From assembly GCA_012719415.1 (NCBI GenBank), contig JAAYAK010000267.1:1-32202 (forward strand): 32,202 bases of DNA, in the 5' to 3' direction. Within the stretch, counting starts at the first letter, position 1, and the number at the start of each line of letters is the position of its first letter. The notes under the pieces were generated by a model that worked only from the letters and a program-made list of their open reading frames with translations, was not told the DNA's origin and did no database searches. Position numbers and translations under genes: made by a program. The DNA comes from Syntrophorhabdus sp. GTDB lineage: Bacteria; Desulfobacterota; Syntrophorhabdia; Syntrophorhabdales; Syntrophorhabdaceae. Below, piece by piece: positions 10,883-24,124 of the stretch.

Positions 10883-11701
10883 TCAGCTTTCTGATATATA
10901 TTTACAGGCGTTCCTGAAGATCTTAAGTCCGTCCCCTTCTGTCGGGACCTCTTCCCGGGTCCAGCGGGGATGCTGCGTCCGATGCACAAAGGCCTCGGGG
11001 TGCGGCATGAGCCCGAAAACCCTTCCCGTGTCGTCGCACATGGCGGCAATGGCCTCCGTCGAACCATTCGGGTTATCGGGATAGCCCATCGACACCTCAC
11101 CCGCGGCGTCGGCATATTGCAGGACGATATTGCCCCCCTTTTTCATGGCGGACAGGGTCTCCGTCGAATCGACGATGCACTTGCCTTCACCATGTCGCAC
11201 AGGGAGATAGATTTTATCCATATCGTTCGTAAATATGCAATGAGAAAATCGATTTGCCTTCAGATAGACCCAGCGGTCCTCGAACCGGCCCAGGTCGTTT
11301 GCCGTCAGGGTTGCCGACTGTTTTCCGTATGTCTTTCCCAGCGCCGGCAGGAGGCCCGTCTTGACGAGGAGCTGGAAACCGTTGCAGATCCCCATGATGA
11401 CCTTTCCCTCATCAACGAACTTCACGAGCTCGTCGAGAAAACGTCTGCCCGTGTCCGCCATTTTCTGGTATTTCCACTTCACCGCCTGCGCCTTTGCCGA
11501 CCCCAGGTCGTCACCGTCGAGAAAACCCCCGGGAAAATTGATGAAGCTGTACCCGTGGATCAGCCCCGGCCGATCGACGAACTCGTCGATGTGGACGAGC
11601 TCCGGCTCGAAGCCCGCCAGGCGGTTCGCGTGTGCCGTCTCGTTCTCACAGTTGATCCCGTTGCCGAAGACAACAAGGCTCTTTGGTCTTTGTCGTTTCA
11701 T
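10883..11701 (-). CDS. purQ: Phosphoribosylformylglycinamidine synthase, glutaminase subunit PurQ
   Basis: 272 residues, a class I glutamine amidotransferase that releases ammonia from glutamine for PurL in the fourth step of purine synthesis. The nucleophile is C106 in GICNGFQLL; H234 and E236 (LMPHPEAF) complete the triad. The N-terminal VVFGNGINCENETAHA and FPGGFLDGDDLGSAKAQA are typical of PurQ/PurL-glutaminase. It is longer than the ~225-residue Bacillus PurQ. ATG 11701 overlaps the ccsB stop (ATGA), so it is translationally coupled to a cytochrome maturation gene, a functionally unexpected neighbour. No purL or purS is in the window. Confidence 0.92.
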   Translation of the reverse strand: MKRQRPKSLVVFGNGINCENETAHANRLAGFEPELVHIDEFVDRPGLIHGYSFINFPGGFLDGDDLGSAKAQAVKWKYQKMADTGRRFLDELVKFVDEGKVIMGICNGFQLLVKTGLLPALGKTYGKQSATLTANDLGRFEDRWVYLKANRFSHCIFTNDMDKIYLPVRHGEGKCIVDSTETLSAMKKGGNIVLQYADAAGEVSMGYPDNPNGSTEAIAAMCDDTGRVFGLMPHPEAFVHRTQHPRWTREEVPTEGDGLKIFRNACKYISES

Positions 11702-12510
11702 GTCGCGTAACTATGCAATCCAGCAAGAAAAAAATTGACGCCGAAATAGGTGATGATAACGCTCGCAAAACCGATGATCGACAGGATCGCTGTCCTCCTC
11801 CCCCTCCAGCCCCCCGTAAAGCGAAGGTGAAGGATCAGGGCGTAGACGATCCAGGTTATGAGCGACCACGTTTCCTTCGGGTCCCAGCTCCAGTACGACC
11901 CCCACGCGTAGTGGGCCCATACAGCTCCCGTTAGTATACCAGATGTGAGCATGGAAAAGCCAATAATAATGCTCCTGTAATTGATGTCCTCCAGGGTTCG
12001 GCCCGGCGGTACGATCCCGCGGGACCCAAAGAAATAAAGCCCCCCGCACGTGAAGGACACGAGGAACGCGGCGTAGGCCAGGAAGCAGGTTATGACGTGC
12101 ACATGCAGCCAGTTGCTCTGCAAGGCCGGGATGAGGGGTTGAATGCCCCGTTCGACCCCGGGGGAGAGGGAGGCGTAGGCCATGAGCGCGAGCGACGCGA
12201 TGGCGGCTGCGAAGGTTATGACCGGGAACAGCCTCCTTCTCATGACGATCACGAGAGCGCTTATGGACCAGGAAAAGAATATGAGGGACTCGTAATAGTT
12301 TGAGAGCGGCGCGTGCCCCATCCCCAGTCGGTACGACTCGACCCAGCGCAGGCCGATACCCGCCGTTTGAAGGGCAAAGGTGAGGAGGAGACAATACCAG
12401 GCGATCGTCAGGACGGCCTTCTTTCCCGTAACGAAATAGAGGATGTACAGGAAGAAGAGGGCGAGGTAGAGGATCGTCGAGATCCCGAGGATCATGTCGT
12501 GCGTTATCAT
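11698..12510 (-). CDS. ccsB: System II cytochrome c biogenesis protein CcsB/ResC (CcsA family)
   Basis: 270 residues, polytopic with about eight membrane segments. It works with the ResB/Ccs1 partner to carry haem across the membrane and attach it to apocytochromes outside. The haem-handling tryptophan-rich motif is WGSYWSWDPKETW at 203-215, with flanking candidate ligand histidines H136/H138 (NWLHVHVITCF) and H200. ATG 12510 overlaps the ccs1 stop (ATGA), and its own stop overlaps purQ. The frame is open upstream of 12510, but that part is a shadow of ccs1. Together with ccs1 it forms a complete two-subunit System II synthetase, immediately downstream of a probable substrate cytochrome. Confidence 0.93.
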   Translation of the reverse strand: MITHDMILGISTILYLALFFLYILYFVTGKKAVLTIAWYCLLLTFALQTAGIGLRWVESYRLGMGHAPLSNYYESLIFFSWSISALVIVMRRRLFPVITFAAAIASLALMAYASLSPGVERGIQPLIPALQSNWLHVHVITCFLAYAAFLVSFTCGGLYFFGSRGIVPPGRTLEDINYRSIIIGFSMLTSGILTGAVWAHYAWGSYWSWDPKETWSLITWIVYALILHLRFTGGWRGRRTAILSIIGFASVIITYFGVNFFLAGLHSYAT

Positions 12511-13817
12511 GCGAGGTCCTTTGAGAGCCTGCGGAGCTCTTCGAGAAAGCCCTCCCTGTTCCTCGCGGCCACACCGCCAACGTGTATCTCGGCACCATCG
12601 CTCACGACGTATATCCTCCGGTGGAAGGTGAAGAAGTTTATGTAGAGCCCGACGAGCATGAGGGCGAACCCCGCGAGCACCACAGGCACGCCGGGGTCGC
12701 GCGATACCTCGAGACCCGTGTAATATCCGCCGGTTATCCCCTCGAGGGAGATCCGCGAGCCCTCGATCACGCGCGTCCTCATCCTTTCGACATCCCGCAG
12801 GAACCAGAGCGTCTTCGGCTCTTCCCCGTCCATGTAGGCGACCATCACCCCGGGGCCGAAATCGTGGACCTCGGCGGCGTAGCGCACCACCATGAAGGGG
12901 GTCCTGCCTGCCTTCGCGACCTCTTGCTCCGCAAGCACGACCTCCCTGCCGTCCACACGGAAGGCGTACCTGTTCGATGTCCCGTAACTCGACTGGTACA
13001 GCCTGACCCCGTTGTAGGACAGGGGCTCGTTGACCCTGATCCTGCCCTCCTTCACGACCTTTCCCGCGGCGTCGAGGATCTCGATGTCGCTCGCGTACTC
13101 TTTCGGCTGCCCCCCGGGGTAAAGACTGATGGTGAAATCCTTGCACCTCACGGTAAAGCCCAGCGGCACCGGGGGCCGCCCCCTTTCGCGTTTGACGGCT
13201 GCCTGCGCCGTCTCGCCCACCCTCAGGACGATAAAGCCCCTGTCACCGCCGACAAGCCCGATGAGGCCGCCGAGAAGCACGGCGAGGATGCTTGCGTGAA
13301 TGACGACGACCCCGTATCGTGCGAGAGATCCTTTCTCATAGAGCGCCATCGTTTCCGACAGCTCTTTCTTCCTGTACGAGGACGCGCCAAGCCGGCGGGA
13401 GACCTCGTCGAGGGCCCCTGCTGTCGCGGTGAAGCCGGAGCCTGCGGCCACGAGGCCCTTCACGTCCGCCGGGGCCTTTGCCGTTCGCCCCTTTTCCGCC
13501 GTCAGGCTTCGTATCCGCTGCACAGTGCAGGCAACGAGGTTGACGGTAAAAAGGGCGAGGAGAAAATAGAACCACGGCGAATGGTAGGTGTCGTCGAACC
13601 CGAAGAGCTTTATGAAGTGATACGCCCTCTCGCTGTAAAGGGAGAGGTACTCCTCCTCGGTGCCCCCCTGCTTGATGACGGTTCCCAGGATGGATGTCGC
13701 CGCGATGAGCGTGAGCGACACGATGCCGAGGCGCACCGACGCAAGGTGCCGCAGGAGACGGGGTGCCCGTGAGCCTGGTACGGCCTTCTTTTCCCTATTG
13801 CTTTTTGTGGCAGTCAT
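12507..13817 (-). CDS. ccs1: System II cytochrome c biogenesis protein Ccs1/ResB
   Basis: 436 residues of the ResB family. Expected layout: two early membrane segments (LGIVSLTLIAATSILGTVI near 30-48 and FYFLLALFTVNLVACTV near 83-99), a third near 170-190 (VVVIHASILAVLLGGLIGLV), a large extracytoplasmic domain of about 190 residues, and a fourth segment near residue 385 (PVVLAGFALMLVGLYINFF). It is thought to hold apocytochromes reduced and to receive haem with CcsB. The conserved early IKQGGTEEEYLSLYSE is typical. The start overlaps the end of the cytochrome gene by 23 bases and lacks a clear ribosome site, so translation probably depends on coupling. The stop overlaps ccsB by 4 bases. Confidence 0.92.
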   Translation of the reverse strand: MTATKSNREKKAVPGSRAPRLLRHLASVRLGIVSLTLIAATSILGTVIKQGGTEEEYLSLYSERAYHFIKLFGFDDTYHSPWFYFLLALFTVNLVACTVQRIRSLTAEKGRTAKAPADVKGLVAAGSGFTATAGALDEVSRRLGASSYRKKELSETMALYEKGSLARYGVVVIHASILAVLLGGLIGLVGGDRGFIVLRVGETAQAAVKRERGRPPVPLGFTVRCKDFTISLYPGGQPKEYASDIEILDAAGKVVKEGRIRVNEPLSYNGVRLYQSSYGTSNRYAFRVDGREVVLAEQEVAKAGRTPFMVVRYAAEVHDFGPGVMVAYMDGEEPKTLWFLRDVERMRTRVIEGSRISLEGITGGYYTGLEVSRDPGVPVVLAGFALMLVGLYINFFTFHRRIYVVSDGAEIHVGGVAARNREGFLEELRRLSKDLA

Positions 13818-14178
13818 TACACTTCGTCGGCGCCTTCACTCCTTTCGCCGATGACTGTTTGTGACATTCTATACAGTTCTTGTGGTACGCATCCTTGATC
13901 GGCATCGCGCCGTTCTTCGCATCCTTGAGGTCGTGGCAGGGCATGCATCCCCCGGGCTCCTTCGGGTTCTTGTCCTTGTGGTGACATTCGGCACAGTCTA
14001 TCTTGGCCTTCTCCGTGTGCAGCGGATGGGAAAAGGGCACGGGAGGGAACTTCGCTCCCTCGAGCTTCAGCATCATCGATTCCGGCGCCTTCTTCTGGGC
14101 AAAAGCGCCTGTGAGCAACACGAGGACGAAGACCGCGACCATTGCCAGTCCGAGTGCGATCCTTGTTTCTTTCTTCAT
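13795..14178 (-). CDS. Periplasmic tetrahaem class III cytochrome c
   Basis: 127 residues with a cleavable signal peptide: MKKETR, a hydrophobic stretch to about 24, and a likely cut after AFA27. Four CxxCH haem sites are present at 62-66 (CAECH), 78-82 (CMPCH), 102-106 (CIECH) and 120-124 (CNDCH). Further histidines at 51, 54, 67 and 99 can act as distal ligands. This fits the cytochrome c3 (four-haem) pattern rather than the three-haem c7 form. Such proteins shuttle electrons from hydrogenases or formate dehydrogenases to membrane complexes in anaerobes. ATG 14178 is preferred to 14193 because AGAGGTG lies between them. It has its own promoter and is the first gene of the maturation operon. 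Confidence 0.92.
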   Translation of the reverse strand: MKKETRIALGLAMVAVFVLVLLTGAFAQKKAPESMMLKLEGAKFPPVPFSHPLHTEKAKIDCAECHHKDKNPKEPGGCMPCHDLKDAKNGAMPIKDAYHKNCIECHKQSSAKGVKAPTKCNDCHKKQ

Positions 14179-14213
14179 ATCACACCTCTTCATCGGGTTT
14201 TCAAATACTCAGA

Positions 14214-14243
14214 ATGTTATCGCAAGTTTGGGAGATAAGTCAA
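14214..14243 (-). promoter_or_regulatory. Sigma-70 promoter for the cytochrome c operon
   Basis: On the minus strand TTGACT (14238-14243) and TAACAT (14214-14219) are 18 bases apart, ending about 35 bases before the cytochrome start. The -35 element overlaps the stop codon of the Nudix gene, so the downstream operon can be transcribed independently of it. Confidence 0.6.
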
Positions 14244-15262
14244 GCGAAGGACGCACCCCCGGTCCGGGCGTATCCCACCGCCGTGTGGTATGCGGCACGG
14301 TCGAAGAAGTAGACCAGGCGTTCCCCCAGCTCGAACATGCGGTAGATGTCGACGGCCTTTTCCCAGACACCGAAGGAATAGGTAAACATCCACACGTGTT
14401 TCTTGAGCAGGCTCAAGGAGCTGATGGCCTCTTCCAGCGGCACCCCTCCCTCCTTGCGCTCGCTGCCCAGGCTGCGGTAGAAGGAGGTGAACTCGCTCTC
14501 GCTTTTCTCCTTTCTCAACCAGGCGCCGAACTGGCCCATGATGACCATGGCCCTCGCGTGCAGGGCCTGCCTGTCAAGGCGCCGATAGGAGCGTGTCGAG
14601 GGGTTGGTCGTGATATCGTCGAGCCACAAGCTGACGATCTTCCCCGAGTTCTCCTGCACGGCATTCGCGAGTTCGTCGGACAGAAGGATGACGGGGTAGC
14701 CGATCCTGTCCTTGACGGTGCTCTCCACGAAGGTCTCAAAAGAGTCGTGCATGCTCCAGAGGTCCTTCTTCAGCTCCACGAACTTCGCCAGCGCCTTCTC
14801 CTGGGAGTCAAAGGCAAGCTTCGGGAGGTTCATGACGGGGAAATACCTCGCCTCCGAGGCGTCATCCCCGGCCTTTTCGTGTCCGCCTGTCTTTTCGACC
14901 TCGAAGGTCACGATGACGAGCTCGCCGTAGAGCGGGTTCACGTGGGAACCAACGTCGAGGAGCTGCACGATCCTGCCCTCGACCCCGGCCTCCTCCTTCA
15001 ACTCGCGAAGGGCGGCGTCCTCTATGCTTTCCCCCGTTTCCGCGAAACCGATGGGGCAGCACCACATGCCTTTGAAGGGCTCCTTCGCCCGGCGCACGAG
15101 CAGTATCTCACGCTTCGCGTTCGCAAGGATCACCGACGCTACGGGCAGCGGGTTCTCGTAATACACGGTGTCGCATCCGGCACACACCTGCCTGTGCTTG
15201 CCGTCAAGGAAGTCGGTGCCGAGAACCATGCCGCAATGGGCGCAATAGACCTTCTTTTTCAT
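14240..15262 (-). CDS. Zinc-ribbon Nudix hydrolase fused to an RsbRD-like helical domain
   Basis: 340 residues in three parts. Residues 1-35 form a zinc ribbon (C7, C10, C27, C30). Residues ~38-160 are a Nudix domain with a complete Nudix box G72-x5-E78-x7-R86-E87-x2-E90-E91-x-G93, so hydrolysis of a nucleoside-diphosphate-linked substrate is expected. Residues ~175-335 are almost all helical: SDELANAVQENSGKIVSLWL, then LDRQALHARAMVIMGQFGAWL, then SLLKKHVWMFTYSFGVWEKA. This resembles the RsbRD N-terminal/globin-like sensor fold of stress-signalling proteins, although I am only moderately sure. Most zinc-ribbon Nudix proteins stop after the catalytic domain, so the fusion is unusual. ATG 15262 overlaps the methyltransferase stop (ATGA). 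Confidence 0.82.
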   Translation of the reverse strand: MKKKVYCAHCGMVLGTDFLDGKHRQVCAGCDTVYYENPLPVASVILANAKREILLVRRAKEPFKGMWCCPIGFAETGESIEDAALRELKEEAGVEGRIVQLLDVGSHVNPLYGELVIVTFEVEKTGGHEKAGDDASEARYFPVMNLPKLAFDSQEKALAKFVELKKDLWSMHDSFETFVESTVKDRIGYPVILLSDELANAVQENSGKIVSLWLDDITTNPSTRSYRRLDRQALHARAMVIMGQFGAWLRKEKSESEFTSFYRSLGSERKEGGVPLEEAISSLSLLKKHVWMFTYSFGVWEKAVDIYRMFELGERLVYFFDRAAYHTAVGYARTGGASFA

Positions 15263-16038
15263 TTTCCTGCCAGGAATATCCTGTCGTTCTTGTTGAAGCT
15301 GAGCTCGCCCTTCCGGCTGAGCTCGGAGAGCATCTTGTCCCGGACGACGCGGGGGTCCACATCCTTTTCGATGAATTCCCTCTTGAAATCGATGTACAGG
15401 GCGAGGGACTCTTCGTCGCCCTCGCGAAAGACGAGCGCGTTCGGGTAATCAATGCGGTCCACCGTCGCAAAGTGCCGCCCGAGGAGCGCCTCGCCGTTCT
15501 CGGCGGAAAACCGCTCTATGACCTTTCTCAGGTTCCTGAAATCGAAGTAGTGCTGCCCCTCTTCAAGCATGGAAACGCTGTGGGTCAGGGACAGGAACAG
15601 CCCCCCGGGCTTGAGGACCCGGGCCATCTCACCGACGGCACCGGGGAAGAAATACAGGGAATAGAGGGACAGCACGAGATCGAAGTGGTTGGACGGCAGT
15701 CCCGTCGGCGCGGGCAGCGTCACCACCCGGAAGGCGGCATCGCGGGCCCGGGCGGCCGCGACCGCGAGGAAAGGGGCCTCATTCTCCGCAAGGCAGTCCA
15801 CTCCGACGATGAGGTCGAGCCCCTCGGGCATCACCTGCTCGAACCAGCCGTACCCGCAGCCGACATCGAGAACGCTCTTCACCCGGGGCCAGGGCACCGC
15901 GTCGCGGACAACGCTCCTGATATCCCTTCTGTTGCGGGAATGCTCCCGTATGATGGTCCCGACCCGCGCGTGAAGGTCGTGGTCCCTGTAGCTCCCGATT
16001 ATCCCGGCGCTCCCTTCCCACGCGTCCGTCTCGGCCAT
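15259..16038 (-). CDS. Class I SAM-dependent methyltransferase
   Basis: 259 residues. The SAM-binding motif I is VLDVGCGYGWFEQV; motif II is the acidic VGVDCLAENEAPF, and motif IV is NHFDLVLSLYSLYFFPGAV, followed by ARVLKPGGLFLSLTHS. This is the Methyltransf_11/25 type of fold. The C-terminal ~90 residues (YFDFRNLRKVIERF onward) carry no recognised domain and may determine the substrate, which is unknown. ATG 16038 with AGGGGG upstream is preferred; the frame extends to 16071 but would overlap the previous gene. It sits between the Sua5/YciO/YrdC gene (10 bases upstream) and the Nudix gene (4-base overlap), so it belongs to the same polycistronic message. Confidence 0.85.
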   Translation of the reverse strand: MAETDAWEGSAGIIGSYRDHDLHARVGTIIREHSRNRRDIRSVVRDAVPWPRVKSVLDVGCGYGWFEQVMPEGLDLIVGVDCLAENEAPFLAVAAARARDAAFRVVTLPAPTGLPSNHFDLVLSLYSLYFFPGAVGEMARVLKPGGLFLSLTHSVSMLEEGQHYFDFRNLRKVIERFSAENGEALLGRHFATVDRIDYPNALVFREGDEESLALYIDFKREFIEKDVDPRVVRDKMLSELSRKGELSFNKNDRIFLAGK

Positions 16039-16048
16039 TCTCAACCCC

Positions 16049-16663
16049 CTACCGGGAGATGCGGTCCTCAAGGGCGCCCTTCCCTTCCCTCAGCAGCTCC
16101 ACGGCCTCGTCGGCGAGCCTTACCACCGTCGATGGTTCGCTTACCAGGACCCCACCGTCGACCACGAGGGAGATGTTGTTCCCAAAGGTCTTTTCGATGA
16201 CCCGCGGGTCCGTCATGACCTCGTCCCCGGAGATCCGGGCGCTCGTATTGATGACGGGCCGGCCGCAGAGCGCCGCTATGGCCACCGGCGCCGGGTGGGC
16301 CGGTATCCTCACCCCGACCTCTTTTCTGTCCGTCATGAGAAGCTTGGGGATGATCTTCCTCGCCTTGAGGACAAAGGTGAAGGGTCCCGGCAGGTACCAT
16401 TTTACAATGTCAAAGGAGAAATCGCTCAGGACGGCATAGGTGCTTATGTCCTTCATGTCCCTGCAGATGATGCTGAGCGCTCTCTTGGGGTCAAGGCGCT
16501 TCATCGCGTAGAGTTTCCGAATGGACCTTATGTTGAAAAGGTCGCACCCGATCCCGTAGTGCGTGTCCGTGGGGTATGCGATGACACCGCCTTCCTGCAT
16601 CGTCCTCACGATGAGGTCCGTCACCTTCTTCTTCGGCCGCTCCGGGTTCCACTCAACGATCAT
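16049..16663 (-). CDS. Sua5/YciO/YrdC-family protein (threonylcarbamoyl-AMP synthase type)
   Basis: 204 residues forming one YrdC-like domain. Proteins of this fold that act as TsaC/Sua5 make threonylcarbamoyl-AMP for the t6A modification of ANN-decoding tRNAs. Visible signatures are GGVIAYPTDTHYGIGCDLFN near the N-terminus, KRLDPKRALSIICRDM, LPGPFTFVLKA, and VGVRIPAHPAPVAIAA. The basic nucleotide/RNA-binding residues around KR...K are present. The length and the DPKRALSIICRD stretch are closer to the YciO subgroup, whose role is less clear, so tsaC is not assigned. The gene overlaps the upstream methyltransferase by 4 bases (ATGA). Family certain, precise function not. Confidence 0.87.
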   Translation of the reverse strand: MIVEWNPERPKKKVTDLIVRTMQEGGVIAYPTDTHYGIGCDLFNIRSIRKLYAMKRLDPKRALSIICRDMKDISTYAVLSDFSFDIVKWYLPGPFTFVLKARKIIPKLLMTDRKEVGVRIPAHPAPVAIAALCGRPVINTSARISGDEVMTDPRVIEKTFGNNISLVVDGGVLVSEPSTVVRLADEAVELLREGKGALEDRISR

Positions 16664-17241
16664 GTCTTCCTCGCCACCAGTTGTGCTGTCGCACGCTTTC
16701 TCCCCTTGTGTTCCCTGATCCCTTCGTGGTAGTGGATGGGCTCGAACCCCGGGAAAAGGGCCGGAAGTTCTCCCTCATCAAGAAGAAAGGCGGGGTTCCT
16801 GGGATGGTCCACATCACCGCCCGCCCTGAGGAATGTCTCATACATAAGTATACCACCCCTGTCGAGGACCCCTGCGATGTCCCTGGTGATCTCCCGGAGC
16901 AGGAAGTAGAAGACGATGACCCCTCGGAAAGAACCTTTCCTGAACGGCATGCCTGCCGCGTCGCCCTGCACCATCGCGATGCTGAGGCCCCGTGCCACCG
17001 CGGCCTGCCGGGCGATCTTCAACCCCTCCCACGAGCGTTCAAGGCCCGTCACCTGAATGCCCTTCGACGCGAGAAAGAGGGCGTCTCTCCCGCTGCCCAT
17101 GGCAATGTCGGCCGTGGGCCCGGTGAAAAGATGGTGGTACTCCACAAGGAGATCGTGGGCGTCGTCGGCACCGTCGTAGAAACCCTTTCGATACTTGTCG
17201 TCCCAGTCGGGTGTCTCGTGGTCCCCGCTTTCCTTCCTCAT
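16660..17241 (-). CDS. Small TehB-like SAM-dependent methyltransferase
   Basis: 193 residues. A class I methyltransferase core begins with DWDDKYRKGFYDGADDAHDLL, then the SAM-binding segment ADIAMGSGRDALFLASKG with motif I as MGSGRD and acidic end GLERS. This is followed by MVQGDAAGMPF and FRGVIVFYFLLREI. The order and sizes resemble TehB/thiopurine-type methyltransferases and other small soluble enzymes of that group; the substrate cannot be read from the sequence. It is the first gene of the minus-strand unit, beginning 90 bases from the divergent HAD phosphatase gene, and its stop overlaps the next start (ATGA). Confidence 0.83.
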   Translation of the reverse strand: MRKESGDHETPDWDDKYRKGFYDGADDAHDLLVEYHHLFTGPTADIAMGSGRDALFLASKGIQVTGLERSWEGLKIARQAAVARGLSIAMVQGDAAGMPFRKGSFRGVIVFYFLLREITRDIAGVLDRGGILMYETFLRAGGDVDHPRNPAFLLDEGELPALFPGFEPIHYHEGIREHKGRKRATAQLVARKT

Positions 17242-18645: not shown

Positions 18646-19962
18646 ATGTCTGACATCCTTTCCGAAATAAAGCCCAAAATAGCCTCCATTGTCAGTGAGG
18701 ACAGCTTCAAGACGTGGATAGAACCGCTCAGTTTCATAGACCTTACGAACCACAACTGCCGAATCGGGGTACCCAACGCCTTCTTCCGGGACTGGGTTTC
18801 GGAGAACTTCGAGCCCATCATCGTTACCCTCCTCAAAGACGTGACGAACGAGGATGTGAAGATCGAATATGTGCTGAGAAAGGACGAGAAGGCGGACGAC
18901 AAGAAAAGGTCTGTCGCAAGGAAGCAGGTCCCCTACAGTCAGTTCAATCCAAAATATACCTTCGAGAACTTCGTGGTGGGCACAAGCAACCAGTTTGCCA
19001 ATGCCGCCTGTCTGGCCGTATCGACGAACCCGGGCAAGACATACAATCCTCTTTTCATATACGGTGGGGTAGGACTCGGCAAGACACATCTTCTCAACGC
19101 CGTCGGTAACTTCCTTGTCAAGCACGGGACGACCAATCCCGACCGCATATGCTATATCACCGCGGAGACCTTCACCAATGAACTCATCAATTCCATACGG
19201 TATGAGAAGATGGATGATTTCCGGAACAGGTTCAGGAAGATGGACATTATTCTCATCGATGATATTCAGTTCATTGCCGGGAAGGAGAGGACACAGGCGG
19301 AATTCTTTCACACCTTTAACACGCTGTACGACAACATGAAGCAGATCGTCGTTACAAGCGACAAATTCCCCAGGGATATCGAGAATTTCGAGGAGCGTCT
19401 CAAATCGCGCTTTGAGTGGGGCCTCGTCGCGGATATACAAACACCGGACATAGAAACAAAGGTCGCCATTCTCAACAAGAAGGCCGAGGCTGAAAAGATC
19501 AATCTGCCCCTCGACGTTGCCTTCTTCATAGCAAACAATTCCGAGGATTCGATCCGGTCCCTGGAGGGCACCCTCATCCGTGTCGGCGCGTATGCATCAC
19601 TCAACAACACACCTATCACCACGGACCTCGTCAAACAGATCATGAGCCATATCATCAGGGACAAGAACAAGGAGATCACCATTGATATGATCCTCAAGGA
19701 GGTATGTTCGCACTTTTCCGTCACCATCGGTGATATACGGTCAAGCAAGCGGATCAAATCCATTATGGTTCCGCGTCAGGTGGCAATGTACCTCTCGAGG
19801 AAGATGACCGATTCTTCCCTCGTCAGCATCGGGGAGAAACTGGGTGGAAAGGACCACGCCACCGTGCTCCACTCCATAAAGAAGATAGATGGTGAATTAA
19901 ATGTTAAAAAGGAGTTGAAAAGCAGTGTTGAAAAGATCGTTCAGAGATTGAAGTCAACATGA
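18646..19962 (+). CDS. dnaA: Chromosomal replication initiator DnaA
   Basis: 438 residues. Domain I (1-~78) starts SDILSEIKPKIASIVSEDSFKTWIEPL. Domain II is very short, only about 20 charged residues (KDEKADDKKRSVARK). The AAA+ domain III begins at NPKYTFENFVVG, with Walker A GGVGLGKTH near 140-148 and Walker B IILIDDIQF ending at 210. Domain IV carries the DnaA signature GKDHATVLHSIKKI near 402-414, which reads DnaA boxes. The protein melts oriC and loads helicase. No clear ribosome site precedes ATG 18646, and DnaA boxes press against it, which suggests tight autoregulation. dnaN follows after 117 bases that hold more boxes. Confidence 0.98.
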   Translation: MSDILSEIKPKIASIVSEDSFKTWIEPLSFIDLTNHNCRIGVPNAFFRDWVSENFEPIIVTLLKDVTNEDVKIEYVLRKDEKADDKKRSVARKQVPYSQFNPKYTFENFVVGTSNQFANAACLAVSTNPGKTYNPLFIYGGVGLGKTHLLNAVGNFLVKHGTTNPDRICYITAETFTNELINSIRYEKMDDFRNRFRKMDIILIDDIQFIAGKERTQAEFFHTFNTLYDNMKQIVVTSDKFPRDIENFEERLKSRFEWGLVADIQTPDIETKVAILNKKAEAEKINLPLDVAFFIANNSEDSIRSLEGTLIRVGAYASLNNTPITTDLVKQIMSHIIRDKNKEITIDMILKEVCSHFSVTIGDIRSSKRIKSIMVPRQVAMYLSRKMTDSSLVSIGEKLGGKDHATVLHSIKKIDGELNVKKELKSSVEKIVQRLKST

Positions 19963-20079
19963 TTCAACAGTTACCATAGTTTTTTGCACAGCGTCCATTT
20001 TCATTTAATCCTGTGAAGTCAGTTGGTTGCACGTTTTTCAACATTTTAACATCACTTATCTGTTATGAGGAGTTAATCT
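19926..20079. other. oriC: Right part of oriC: DnaA boxes and AT-rich stretch
   Basis: TTTTCAACA occurs on the minus strand at 19926-19934 (inside the dnaA 3' end) and on the plus strand at 20035-20043; TTTTGCACA lies at 19982-19990. The 117-base dnaA-dnaN gap is markedly richer in A/T than the rest of the window (for example 20041-20079), a candidate unwinding region. dnaA-dnaN gaps are common origin locations. Which of the two flanks of dnaA unwinds is not decidable from sequence. Confidence 0.55.
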
Positions 20080-21165
20080 ATGAAAATAATACTAGATAAG
20101 AACACCATCCTGCAGCCAATATCGAAGATCGTCTCAATAACGGAAAAAAGGTCACTTATGCCTATCCTTTCAAATATCCTCATCGATTTTGGGAAAGAGA
20201 GGACAACCGTATATTCTACGGATCTGGAAGTGAGTGCCATCACACATATAGATTTTGTAACTGACATGGAAAGGAAGATCGTTGTCCATGGGAGGAAGTT
20301 CCTGGAGATACTCAAAGAGTTGGACCATGGTGAGATAGAATTTGTTTTCGAGGACAATGTGATGACGATCCGGCAGAAGATGACGGAGATATCCCTGAGC
20401 CTTCAGGATCCTGAGGAGTTTCCCGAAACAAAGGAGATATCGGCAGGAGAAGAATTCACGATTCCGGGCAGTATCCTGCTGGAGATGATAGACAAAGTGG
20501 AATTCGCGGTTTCCATCGACGAGACACGCTACATATTGACCGGTATGTTCATGAAAGGCCAGGAGGGCAAGGTCGTCGTTGTGGGCACTGACGGTTTCCG
20601 GATGGCACTCTATCAGAGGGATGTCGACGGATTGAAATCATTTCAGGGGATGACGATCCCGAGAAGGTCGGTATCCGAGGTGGAGAGGATGATCGGGGAG
20701 GATGAGGACGTGCGTATCGTGATAGATGAGAAGCACGTCCAGTTCAGCACCGAAAAGATGAGAATAATCTCGCGGATCATCGAGGGGAATTTCCCGGATT
20801 ATGAGAACGTTCTTCCCTCAGGCAACACGAACATCGCCGAGGTGGAGAGGGAAGCGCTCTTTAAGGGTCTCAAGAGGGTGTCTTCCATCATAGGGAGATC
20901 GGAGCCGGTGAAGATGACGTTCTCCGGGAATATGATGACGATAGAGGCTGAGTCCGACATCGGCAGGGCCCGCGAGGTCGTTGACGTGGTATACGATGGT
21001 GAAGAAACTACAATGAACTTCAACGTGAAGTTCCTGACAGATGTCGTAACCCATCTGACAGGGGATGCCGTGACGATAGCGGCGCCGAAGGCGTATGGCG
21101 CAGTCCTCTTCAGGTCCGGGGATGTGGAGGGTTACAAGAACATAGTCATGCCTATAAGGATATGA
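20080..21165 (+). CDS. dnaN: DNA polymerase III beta sliding clamp
   Basis: 361 residues, the usual clamp length. It forms a ring-shaped dimer that tethers polymerase III to DNA. The three repeated beta-clamp domains are recognisable: MKIILDKNTILQPISKIVSITEKRSLMPILSNILI opens domain 1, FTIPGSILLEMIDKVEFAVSIDETRYILTGMFM domain 2, and the third ends VVTHLTGDAVTIAAPKAYGAVLFR with the C-terminal VMPIRI. The protein-binding cleft residues around TDGFRMAL and the C-terminal MPIRI are present. A good ribosome site (AGGAG) lies eight bases before ATG 20080. gyrB begins 3 bases after the stop; the recF gene that often lies between them is missing here. Confidence 0.97.
   Translation: MKIILDKNTILQPISKIVSITEKRSLMPILSNILIDFGKERTTVYSTDLEVSAITHIDFVTDMERKIVVHGRKFLEILKELDHGEIEFVFEDNVMTIRQKMTEISLSLQDPEEFPETKEISAGEEFTIPGSILLEMIDKVEFAVSIDETRYILTGMFMKGQEGKVVVVGTDGFRMALYQRDVDGLKSFQGMTIPRRSVSEVERMIGEDEDVRIVIDEKHVQFSTEKMRIISRIIEGNFPDYENVLPSGNTNIAEVEREALFKGLKRVSSIIGRSEPVKMTFSGNMMTIEAESDIGRAREVVDVVYDGEETTMNFNVKFLTDVVTHLTGDAVTIAAPKAYGAVLFRSGDVEGYKNIVMPIRI

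Positions 21166-24124
<2,959 letters not shown>

What the first reader, a model, noticed from the sequence alone, without database searches (positions are those of the whole stretch)
14240..15262. Nudix hydrolase fused to an RsbRD-like helical sensor domain
A zinc ribbon and complete Nudix box are followed by ~165 residues of helices with no Nudix function, resembling stress-signalling sensor domains (RsbRD N-terminal, globin-like). A catalytic nucleotide hydrolase under a sensor domain would be a direct signal-to-nucleotide-level switch. It is co-translated with two methyltransferases and a Sua5/YciO/YrdC protein.
Basis: partly seen in the sequence, partly recalled or inferred. Interest (0 to 1): 0.55.

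Follow-up and report, generated by a model that had tools for sequence, protein, structure and literature searches.

The report
Globin-sensor Nudix hydrolase with methyltransferase partner
In a group of anaerobic bacteria, an enzyme that cuts nucleotide-type molecules carries a haem-free globin domain of the kind used as a sensor, and it almost always travels with one particular methyltransferase, which points to an undescribed sensor-controlled enzyme pair.

Summary
Window 15262-14240 (-) encodes a 340-residue protein: zinc ribbon, complete Nudix box, long helix, all-helical C-terminal domain. Profiles and structure comparison make that domain a globin-fold relative of the RsbRD_N/HisK_N non-haem sensors; the haem-ligand region has no conserved histidine. 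The fusion is real: 34 of 37 genomes of its family, 39 of 395 sampled from the phylum, both halves under purifying selection. The methyltransferase directly upstream (MT2) occurs in those 39 genomes plus three, and in the three MT2 and the Nudix are one polypeptide without the globin. MT2 is adjacent in 37 of 38 testable genomes. Best reading: a sensor-regulated Nudix hydrolase working with a dedicated methyltransferase. Substrate, ligand and regulation are inferred, not shown. All domains are known; five searches of the held papers found nothing on the combination. New variant of a known kind.

The parts
14240..15262 (-). Nudix-globin fusion gene, 340 aa
15155..15247 (-). zinc ribbon, residues 6-36, four invariant cysteines (7, 10, 27, 30)
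   Evidence: (below Pfam cut-off)
14792..15145 (-). NUDIX domain, residues 40-157
   Evidence: 81.1 bits; 3cng Z 18.2 over residues 4-169, rmsd 8.2
14981..15049 (-). complete Nudix box, residues 72-94
14711..14809 (-). long helix between the two domains, residues 152-184
   Evidence: AlphaFold2 model; pLDDT falls to about 65 towards the end of the helix and below 50 at 185-190
14267..14695 (-). non-haem globin-fold domain (RsbRD_N/HisK_N type), residues 190-332
15259..16038 (-). MT2, class I SAM methyltransferase, conserved partner; its stop overlaps the fusion start (ATGA). The longest ORF starts at 16071 (TTG); the ATG at 16038 is the likelier start (inference)
16049..16663 (-). Sua5/YciO/YrdC, L-threonylcarbamoyladenylate synthase; in the operon, not a conserved partner
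16660..17241 (-). MT1, class I SAM methyltransferase; first gene of the operon, not a conserved partner

Best explanation
The protein is a cytosolic zinc-ribbon Nudix hydrolase whose C-terminal non-haem globin domain is a regulatory sensor, and it works together with the methyltransferase encoded directly upstream (MT2). Most likely steps: (1) the globin domain binds a small, probably hydrophobic ligand in the pocket that haem fills in other globins; (2) the bound state is passed through the long helix 152-184 to the Nudix domain; (3) the Nudix domain hydrolyses a diphosphate-linked nucleotide or cofactor (NDP-X) with its metal-binding Nudix box; (4) MT2 methylates the same compound, its precursor or its product, so the two enzymes act as one functional unit. 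Shown here: the domain make-up, the globin fold (by prediction and profile), an intact Nudix box, purifying selection on both halves, and a near-obligate link to MT2, including single-polypeptide MT2-Nudix proteins. Inferred: ligand binding, regulation of catalysis, the class of substrate, and the common substrate with MT2.
For: Globin fold with nearest neighbours pXO2-61 and pXO1-118 (the full-length model also matches DosC and pXO1-118 there); profile match to pXO2-61 at E 1.3e-4. Stand-alone homologues pass the Pfam cut-offs of RsbRD_N (L052, L053) and HisK_N (L052, L054), and in this genome the other RsbRD_N domain is the N-terminus of a PAS protein. Nudix box and zinc cysteines invariant. 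MT2 in 42 of 395 genomes = the 39 with the fusion plus 3 (Fisher p 9e-51, not corrected for ancestry). MT2 directly upstream on the same strand in 37 of 38 testable fusion genomes of that sample, within 20 nt in 36, with a 4-nt overlap in 24. MT2 absent from 21 of 21 distinct stand-alone globin loci, from 24 of 24 Nudix-only loci and, at E 1e-25, from the 37 Nudix-only and 31 globin-only genomes of the sample. MT2-Nudix in one ORF in G272, G310, G329. Nudix and MT2 distances over 39 loci correlate, r 0.91 against at most 0.22 in 2000 permutations. MT2-linked Nudix domains fall in one group, 100/98.
Against: No ligand, substrate or activity is known. The fold alone does not prove sensing. G041 (79% complete) has the fusion, no MT2 beside it and none found in the genome; G369 has MT2 on another contig; the three MT2-Nudix polypeptides do without the globin. 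Several fusion homologues score below the RsbRD_N cut-off (L058 19.2, L061 18.6 bits) or give no match at E 1 (L047, L064). The tool warns that mostly helical models without a clear match had a typical best Z of 14, so Z 15-16 alone is not strong, and Foldseek's best E-value is 0.004. The relative position of the two domains is uncertain (pTM 0.47). The MT2 profile was built from MT2 genes beside fusions, so more distant unlinked relatives may lie below the threshold.
Confidence: 0.55

Rival explanations
1. The globin domain is a docking module, not a sensor: it holds MT2 next to the Nudix domain so that the two enzymes channel a compound.
For: Where MT2 and Nudix are one polypeptide the globin is missing (3 of 3 genomes). 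In G013, 99% complete, globin and MT2 are both gone although its Nudix domain nests among fusions; G043, 75% complete, shows the same.
Against: G041 keeps the globin without a detectable MT2; in G369 MT2 is encoded elsewhere; 31 of 395 genomes have the globin domain with neither the fusion nor MT2 at the thresholds used, so the domain family does not depend on MT2.
Confidence: 0.25
2. The globin domain binds haem and senses oxygen or redox state, like globin-coupled sensors.
For: High structural similarity to the globin domains of DosC (Z 15.1), BpeGReg (14.1) and AfGcHK (13.6); stand-alone homologues lie beside a radical SAM/SPASM gene and an ALAD gene that look like haem synthesis; H289 is present in 51 of 65 sequences.
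Against: The proximal histidine of DosC is H98 (PMC5549716, passage); the aligned ranges 191-330 and 20-154 place it at about residues 269-274, where the window has R-K-E-G-G-V and the 65-row alignment has 3 histidines in 390 cells. This is a mapping from the ends of the alignment, not residue by residue. H289 lies on the next helix and is Ser, Glu, Val or other in 14 of 65 rows.
Confidence: 0.06
3. The Nudix domain no longer catalyses and only binds a nucleotide, as in NrtR/AraR-type regulators; the protein is a two-ligand regulator of MT2.
For: Nudix domains of solved regulators also match here: 3gz8 (NrtR with ADP-ribose, titled) and 5bs6 (AraR).
Against: The metal-binding and catalytic positions of the Nudix box are invariant in the 39 rows; Pfam finds no DNA-binding domain.
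Confidence: 0.1
4. The fusion is an assembly or annotation artefact or a chance read-through.
For: The named relatives are metagenome assemblies; one relative (G316) is split over two frames.
Against: One-ORF fusion in 37 of 395 genomes, full-length match in 35 of 60, similar constraint on both halves.
Confidence: 0.01

Closest known systems
Non-haem globin sensor domains pXO1-118 / pXO2-61 (PDB 3pmd, 3pmc; HisK_N-type) and the RsbR/RsbRD N-terminal domains
   Same: Globin fold, Z 16.0 and 15.7; profile match E 1.3e-4 to pXO2-61, 0.98 to pXO1-118; RsbRD_N and HisK_N Pfam matches in the family; no histidine in the haem-ligand region.
   Different: RsbR joins its sensing domain to a C-terminal STAS domain (PMC4976288, passages), and pXO2-61 resembles the sensor part of a kinase (PMC5862856, passages); here the domain is C-terminal and fused to a hydrolase. 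The ligand is unknown; PMC4976288 says a B. anthracis domain of this type was crystallised with a fatty acid.
Globin-coupled sensors (DosC, BpeGReg, AfGcHK)
   Same: Globin domain joined to an enzyme; in DosC a diguanylate cyclase (PMC5549716, passages); Z 13.6-15.1.
   Different: DosC binds haem through H98; here no histidine in that region. The globin is C-terminal here (N-terminal in those proteins, recalled), and the enzyme is a Nudix hydrolase.
Nudix hydrolase of Nitrosomonas europaea (PDB 3cng)
   Same: Best PDB sequence match, E 2.4e-17 over residues 5-163, ribbon region included; Z 18.2 over residues 4-169, though rmsd is 8.2.
   Different: The 3cng chain is 189 residues long, so it has no globin domain; its substrate was not established from any call here.
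E. coli NudC, NADH pyrophosphatase
   Same: Match covers the ribbon and Nudix regions (1vk6, 5iw4, E about 1e-9, residues 3-111).
   Different: Scores far below the NCBIfam cut-off for NAD(+) diphosphatase (43.5 against 158 bits).

Membership tests
Nudix hydrolase superfamily | Nudix box GX5EX7REUXEEXGU | tested here: met
   Residues 72-94, invariant at catalytic positions; Pfam NUDIX 81.1 bits
Nudix hydrolase superfamily | hydrolysis of NDP-X | not testable with these tools
   needs an assay
RsbRD_N (PF14361) | profile match above the curated cut-off | tested here: inconclusive
   Window protein 22.8 bits against 24.3, 25.6 in the DNA-level search; homologues L052 28.9 and L053 26.8 are above it, L058 19.2 and L061 18.6 below, L047 and L064 no match
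Non-haem globin sensor domains | globin fold | tested here: met
   AlphaFold2 pLDDT 88, pTM 0.83; best PDB matches 3pmc, 3pmd, DosC; profile match to 3pmc. Predicted, not solved
Non-haem globin sensor domains | no proximal haem-ligand histidine | tested here: met
   Residues 269-274 by the ends of the structural alignment, 3 His in 390 cells
Non-haem globin sensor domains | binds a ligand and regulates its output domain | not testable with these tools
   needs purified protein
Haem globin-coupled sensors | proximal histidine for haem | tested here: not met
   as above
NAD(+) diphosphatase NudC | NCBIfam NF001299 cut-off 158 bits | tested here: not met
   43.5 bits
Stressosome RsbR proteins | C-terminal STAS domain | tested here: not met
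   No STAS match at E 1; the globin domain is the C-terminus
Class I SAM methyltransferase (MT2) | methyltransferase profile and SAM motif I | tested here: met
   Methyltransf_11 44.4 bits, Methyltransf_23 43.4; G71 and G75 in the GxGxG-like motif invariant in the 38 rows; no NCBIfam model among the listed hits reached its cut-off

The most novel reading that the evidence does not exclude
MT2, the Nudix domain and the globin form one undescribed signalling or surveillance unit of anaerobic bacteria: MT2 makes or marks a methylated nucleotide (a signal, a damaged cofactor, or the 5' cap of an RNA) and the Nudix enzyme removes it, with the globin setting the balance in response to a small hydrophobic signal. 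That would be a writer-eraser pair with a built-in sensor.
Probability: 0.1. Interest if true: 0.85.

Novelty: new variant of a known kind. Interest (0 to 1): 0.52.

Why it matters
Sensor globins are known to drive kinases, cyclases and partner-switching complexes; a globin sensor on a Nudix hydrolase would be another kind of output and would put nucleotide or cofactor breakdown under direct ligand control. The near-perfect link to one methyltransferase, with natural MT-Nudix single-chain proteins, makes a concrete two-enzyme pathway testable in anaerobes known mostly from metagenomes.

Tried and rejected
Haem/oxygen sensing: considered because DosC and other globin-coupled sensors are close structural neighbours; set aside because the proximal histidine region has no conserved histidine.

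Artefact or chance read-through: rejected.

Defence system: PADLOC was run on three proteins only and gave generic hits, PDC-S07 on the Nudix part (37.4 bits) and mad2 on both methyltransferases (30.5 and 43.3 bits); the neighbourhood was not scanned for defence genes; not pursued.

MT1, Sua5, cytochrome c3/ResB/CcsA and the MFS transporter as functional partners: rejected as core parts because they change between genera. Neighbours tested near the pair in other families differ too: RpiB, a 4Fe-4S protein, a 2-hydroxyacid dehydrogenase, a GGDEF protein, MTHFR, a HisA/HisF-type and a PurQ-type gene (ten proteins).

Substrate from genome context: among 24 Nudix-only loci mapped, a PurQ-type cluster lies directly upstream in 4 and upstream with one small opposite ORF between in a fifth (L172), and a class II aldolase-like gene directly upstream in 6 (families run on L159, L163 and L160 only). 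Among fusion loci, L099 has a PurQ-type gene two genes upstream of MT2's neighbour; a gene of about 990 residues beside it, shared with L102, was not identified. This hints at purine-type compounds but is too weak to name a substrate. The window's purQ label is mine, by eye.

Substrate from MT2: best PDB and NCBIfam matches are generic methyltransferases; no answer.

Distribution outside the phylum: not tested in genomes. The one genome-contig scan uses exact peptides of the query, so it sees close relatives only; in plasmids 26 records matched and none covered 80% of the query.

Not listed by structure searches: the B. subtilis RsbR domain 2bnl is not among the 50 rows; that is no evidence against it.

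Papers: RsbRD+Nudix 0; Nudix+globin sensor 0 (43); Nudix+methyltransferase+fused+Desulfobacterota 0 (75); Nudix+'methyltransferase fusion' 0 (76); Nudix+sensor domain+allosteric+methyltransferase+zinc ribbon 0 (89). RsbRD alone: 17 papers, listing seen only, by title mostly on Bacillus or Listeria stress responses (80). One search was seen as a listing. One search was badly framed and uninformative.

Full report
What is there. The ORF at 15262-14240 on the minus strand is intact and 340 residues long. From the N-terminus: a zinc ribbon with four cysteines, a Nudix domain with a complete catalytic box, a long helix (152-184) and an all-helical C-terminal part, seven helices when modelled alone. 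It is the last gene of MT1-sua5-MT2-fusion; MT1/sua5 and MT2/fusion overlap as ATGA, and MT2 has an ATG 10 nt after the sua5 stop. A class III cytochrome gene follows on the same strand after a gap, then genes I read by eye as ResB and CcsA. The genome is probably a Syntrophorhabdus relative (inference): a same-genus genome, G001, has its copy on a contig of 23,791 bases, the length of the contig of Syntrophorhabdus sp. PtaB.Bin184 found.

What the C-terminal part is. In Pfam the window protein scores 22.8 bits against RsbRD_N, just under the cut-off of 24.3, and 25.6 in the DNA-level search. Of nine relatives with this domain scanned (L006 apart), stand-alone homologues L052 and L053 pass the RsbRD_N cut-off and L052 and L054 that of HisK_N; L055, L058 and L061 score below, and L047 and L064 show no match to these models at E 1. 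A profile of 65 such domains finds pXO2-61 in the PDB at E 1.3e-4 over nearly its whole length and pXO1-118 at 0.98; the other nine sequences listed, from E 0.005, are designed repeats and others that I take for chance. The window domain alone found nothing useful. The predicted structure of the domain has pLDDT 88 and pTM 0.83. Foldseek puts pXO1-118 and pXO2-61 first, with E-values of only 0.004-0.005; VIA-align gives Z 15.7 and 16.0 for them, 15.1 for DosC and 12.9-14.2 for other globin sensor domains. The tool warns that mostly helical models without a clear match had a typical best Z of 14, so Z alone is not decisive. But by title 49 of the 50 rows are pXO proteins, globin domains, phycobiliprotein or phycobilisome chains, or smURFP (the exception is a designed protein, 8j98), and the sequence match agrees. 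MabR's N-terminal domain, another non-haem globin sensor, has the same kind of neighbours: phycocyanin-family proteins, RsbR (2bnl) and pXO1-118 (3pmd) (PMC11617747, passages).

Haem. PMC5549716 names H98 as the proximal histidine of DosC in 4zvb (passage). The aligned ranges 191-330 and 20-154 place it at about 269-274. The window has R-K-E-G-G-V there; in the 65-row alignment histidine fills 3 of 390 cells in these columns. This uses the ends of the alignment, not a residue-by-residue map. PMC4976288 (passages) describes the Bacillus RsbR domains as non-haem globins and says one B. anthracis domain was crystallised with a fatty acid. That is the basis, by analogy only, for proposing a hydrophobic ligand.

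Is the fusion real and old. Full-length relatives occur in 34 of 37 genomes of the family, own genome included (the exceptions are G013 with the Nudix part only, G031 at 86% completeness with no match, and G033 with distant Nudix matches only), and in 1 of 7 other genomes of the order; 35 of 60 in all. In 395 genomes of at least 80% completeness drawn from the phylum, the fusion is one ORF in 37, split by contig ends in G297 and over two frames in G316: 39 of 395. They lie in families f1, f32, f34, f35, f68, f70, f95 and f106. Within the family, identity to the window is close for the two halves; in the most distant rows the globin is less conserved. dN/dS in five same-genus pairs is 0.06-0.11 for the Nudix half and 0.06-0.08 for the globin half. 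The C-terminal domain without the fusion is found in 31 further genomes of the 395 (70 minus 39).

The partner. The methyltransferase directly upstream, MT2, was searched as a 38-row profile in the 395 genomes (the handles and tallies show the same draw): 42 have it at E 1e-25 or better. Thirty-nine are exactly the fusion genomes. In the other three (G272, G310, G329; families f89 and f98) MT2 and the Nudix domain with its zinc ribbon are one polypeptide of 458-512 residues, without a globin. All full matches lie at 2.2e-85 or better; one further partial match (7.6e-55, G192) is a second, short copy. None of the 37 genomes with only the Nudix relative at E 1e-35, and none of the 31 with only the globin domain, has MT2 at that threshold. 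The profile was made from MT2 genes beside fusions, so very distant kin could be missed. In 38 of the 39 fusion genomes the neighbourhood can be read (in G017 the fusion's contig ends 152 nt upstream and MT2 sits at the start of another contig). MT2 is next to the fusion on the same strand in 37, within 20 nt in 36, and overlaps it by 4 nt in 24 (for G297 and G316 I computed the gap). G369 has MT2 on another contig, and G351 has a gap of 349 nt. Outside this sample, G041 (79% complete) has the fusion without MT2 beside it or found in the genome, while the distant named relative L047 has MT2 with a 4-nt overlap. MT2 was absent from 21 of 21 distinct stand-alone globin loci (22 genes; duplicates of the same place not counted) and from 24 of 24 Nudix-only loci. 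The flanks of the pair differ between families, so the link is not a by-product of a conserved region. Nudix and MT2 distances correlate with r 0.91 over 39 loci; 2000 permutations reached 0.22 at most. That is expected of vertically inherited partners and is not proof of contact. The Fisher value ignores ancestry.

History. In a tree of 65 Nudix domains, 38 fusions, 3 MT2-Nudix proteins and 2 Nudix-only proteins (L056 from G013, L057 from G043) lie on one side of a branch with support 100/98, the other 22 Nudix-only proteins on the other (midpoint root). The two Nudix-only members nest among fusions (L057 with L058 at 100/97, L056 with L067 at only 93/55), so the globin was probably lost there. 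MT2 is missing from both genomes too (G043 is only 75% complete). Whether the MT2-Nudix chains branched off before the globin was gained is not settled (84/43).

How it most likely works. A ligand-sensing globin controls a Nudix hydrolase that acts with a dedicated methyltransferase. The pair MT2-Nudix is the core, because nature has fused it; the globin is the added part. Whether the globin senses, docks MT2, or both, cannot be decided here: its absence in the three fused proteins and its joint loss with MT2 fit docking, while its family, its presence in G041 and its many stand-alone forms fit sensing. I give 0.55 to the sensor reading and 0.25 to docking. The substrate is open. Nudix-only relatives have a PurQ-type gene upstream in 5 of 24 loci (in one with a small ORF between) and an aldolase-like gene in 6 of 24, and one fusion locus, L099, lies behind a PurQ-type gene, which hints at purine-type compounds.

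Novelty. Every domain belongs to a known family. The combination of a non-haem globin with a Nudix hydrolase, and its tie to one methyltransferase family, was not found in the held library; subscription papers are mostly not held, so this is a limited statement. I rate it a new variant of a known kind.

Noticed in passing
L147 4887-6425 (-), L148 5556-6932 (+), L149 4977-6467 (-): MT2 and zinc-ribbon Nudix in a single polypeptide of 458-512 residues in three genomes of families f89 and f98.
   Followed up: yes
L130 5251-5850 (+), L131 5203-5778 (-), L129: Stand-alone globin (RsbRD_N-like) genes near a radical SAM/SPASM gene; in L130 and, by clustering, L131 also an ALAD (HemB) gene, possibly an alternative haem-synthesis cluster (families run on L130 only).
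   Followed up: partly
L053 4949-5419 (-), L124, L125: Stand-alone globin gene followed by a gene with NAD-binding and Fe-S domains (same cluster in all three loci) and, in L053, a Fer4_20/pyridine-nucleotide oxidoreductase gene (NfnAB-like, name recalled); L053 and L125 also have a sigma-54 response regulator on the other side.
   Followed up: no
L129 5161-5697 and 5843-6325 (+): Two stand-alone globin genes in tandem; the match positions suggest the same in several other genomes, such as G167, G278 and G297.
   Followed up: no
L157, L159, L163, L167, L172: Nudix-only relatives downstream of a PurQ-type gene (in four loci also a PurL-type gene) and next to or near a thiC-type gene.
   Followed up: partly
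window 11698-14193 (-): Class III cytochrome c gene followed by ResB- and CcsA-like cytochrome maturation genes (the last two named by eye).
   Followed up: no
window 18646-23529 (+): DnaA-, DnaN- and GyrB-like genes (named by eye) start about 1.4 kb beyond the operon, so it may lie near the replication origin; a dnaA relative is also near the fusion in same-genus loci L037-L039, L045 and L046.
   Followed up: no
L006 1465-2664 (+): The only other RsbRD_N match of the window's genome is the N-terminus of a PAS-domain protein that looks like part of a sensor kinase.
   Followed up: partly
L152 6139-7175 (+): In G316 the fusion is split over two reading frames next to an intact MT2: assembly error or broken gene.
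   Followed up: no
G192:C298:8330-8743: A second, partial MT2-like ORF away from the fusion locus in one genome.
   Followed up: no
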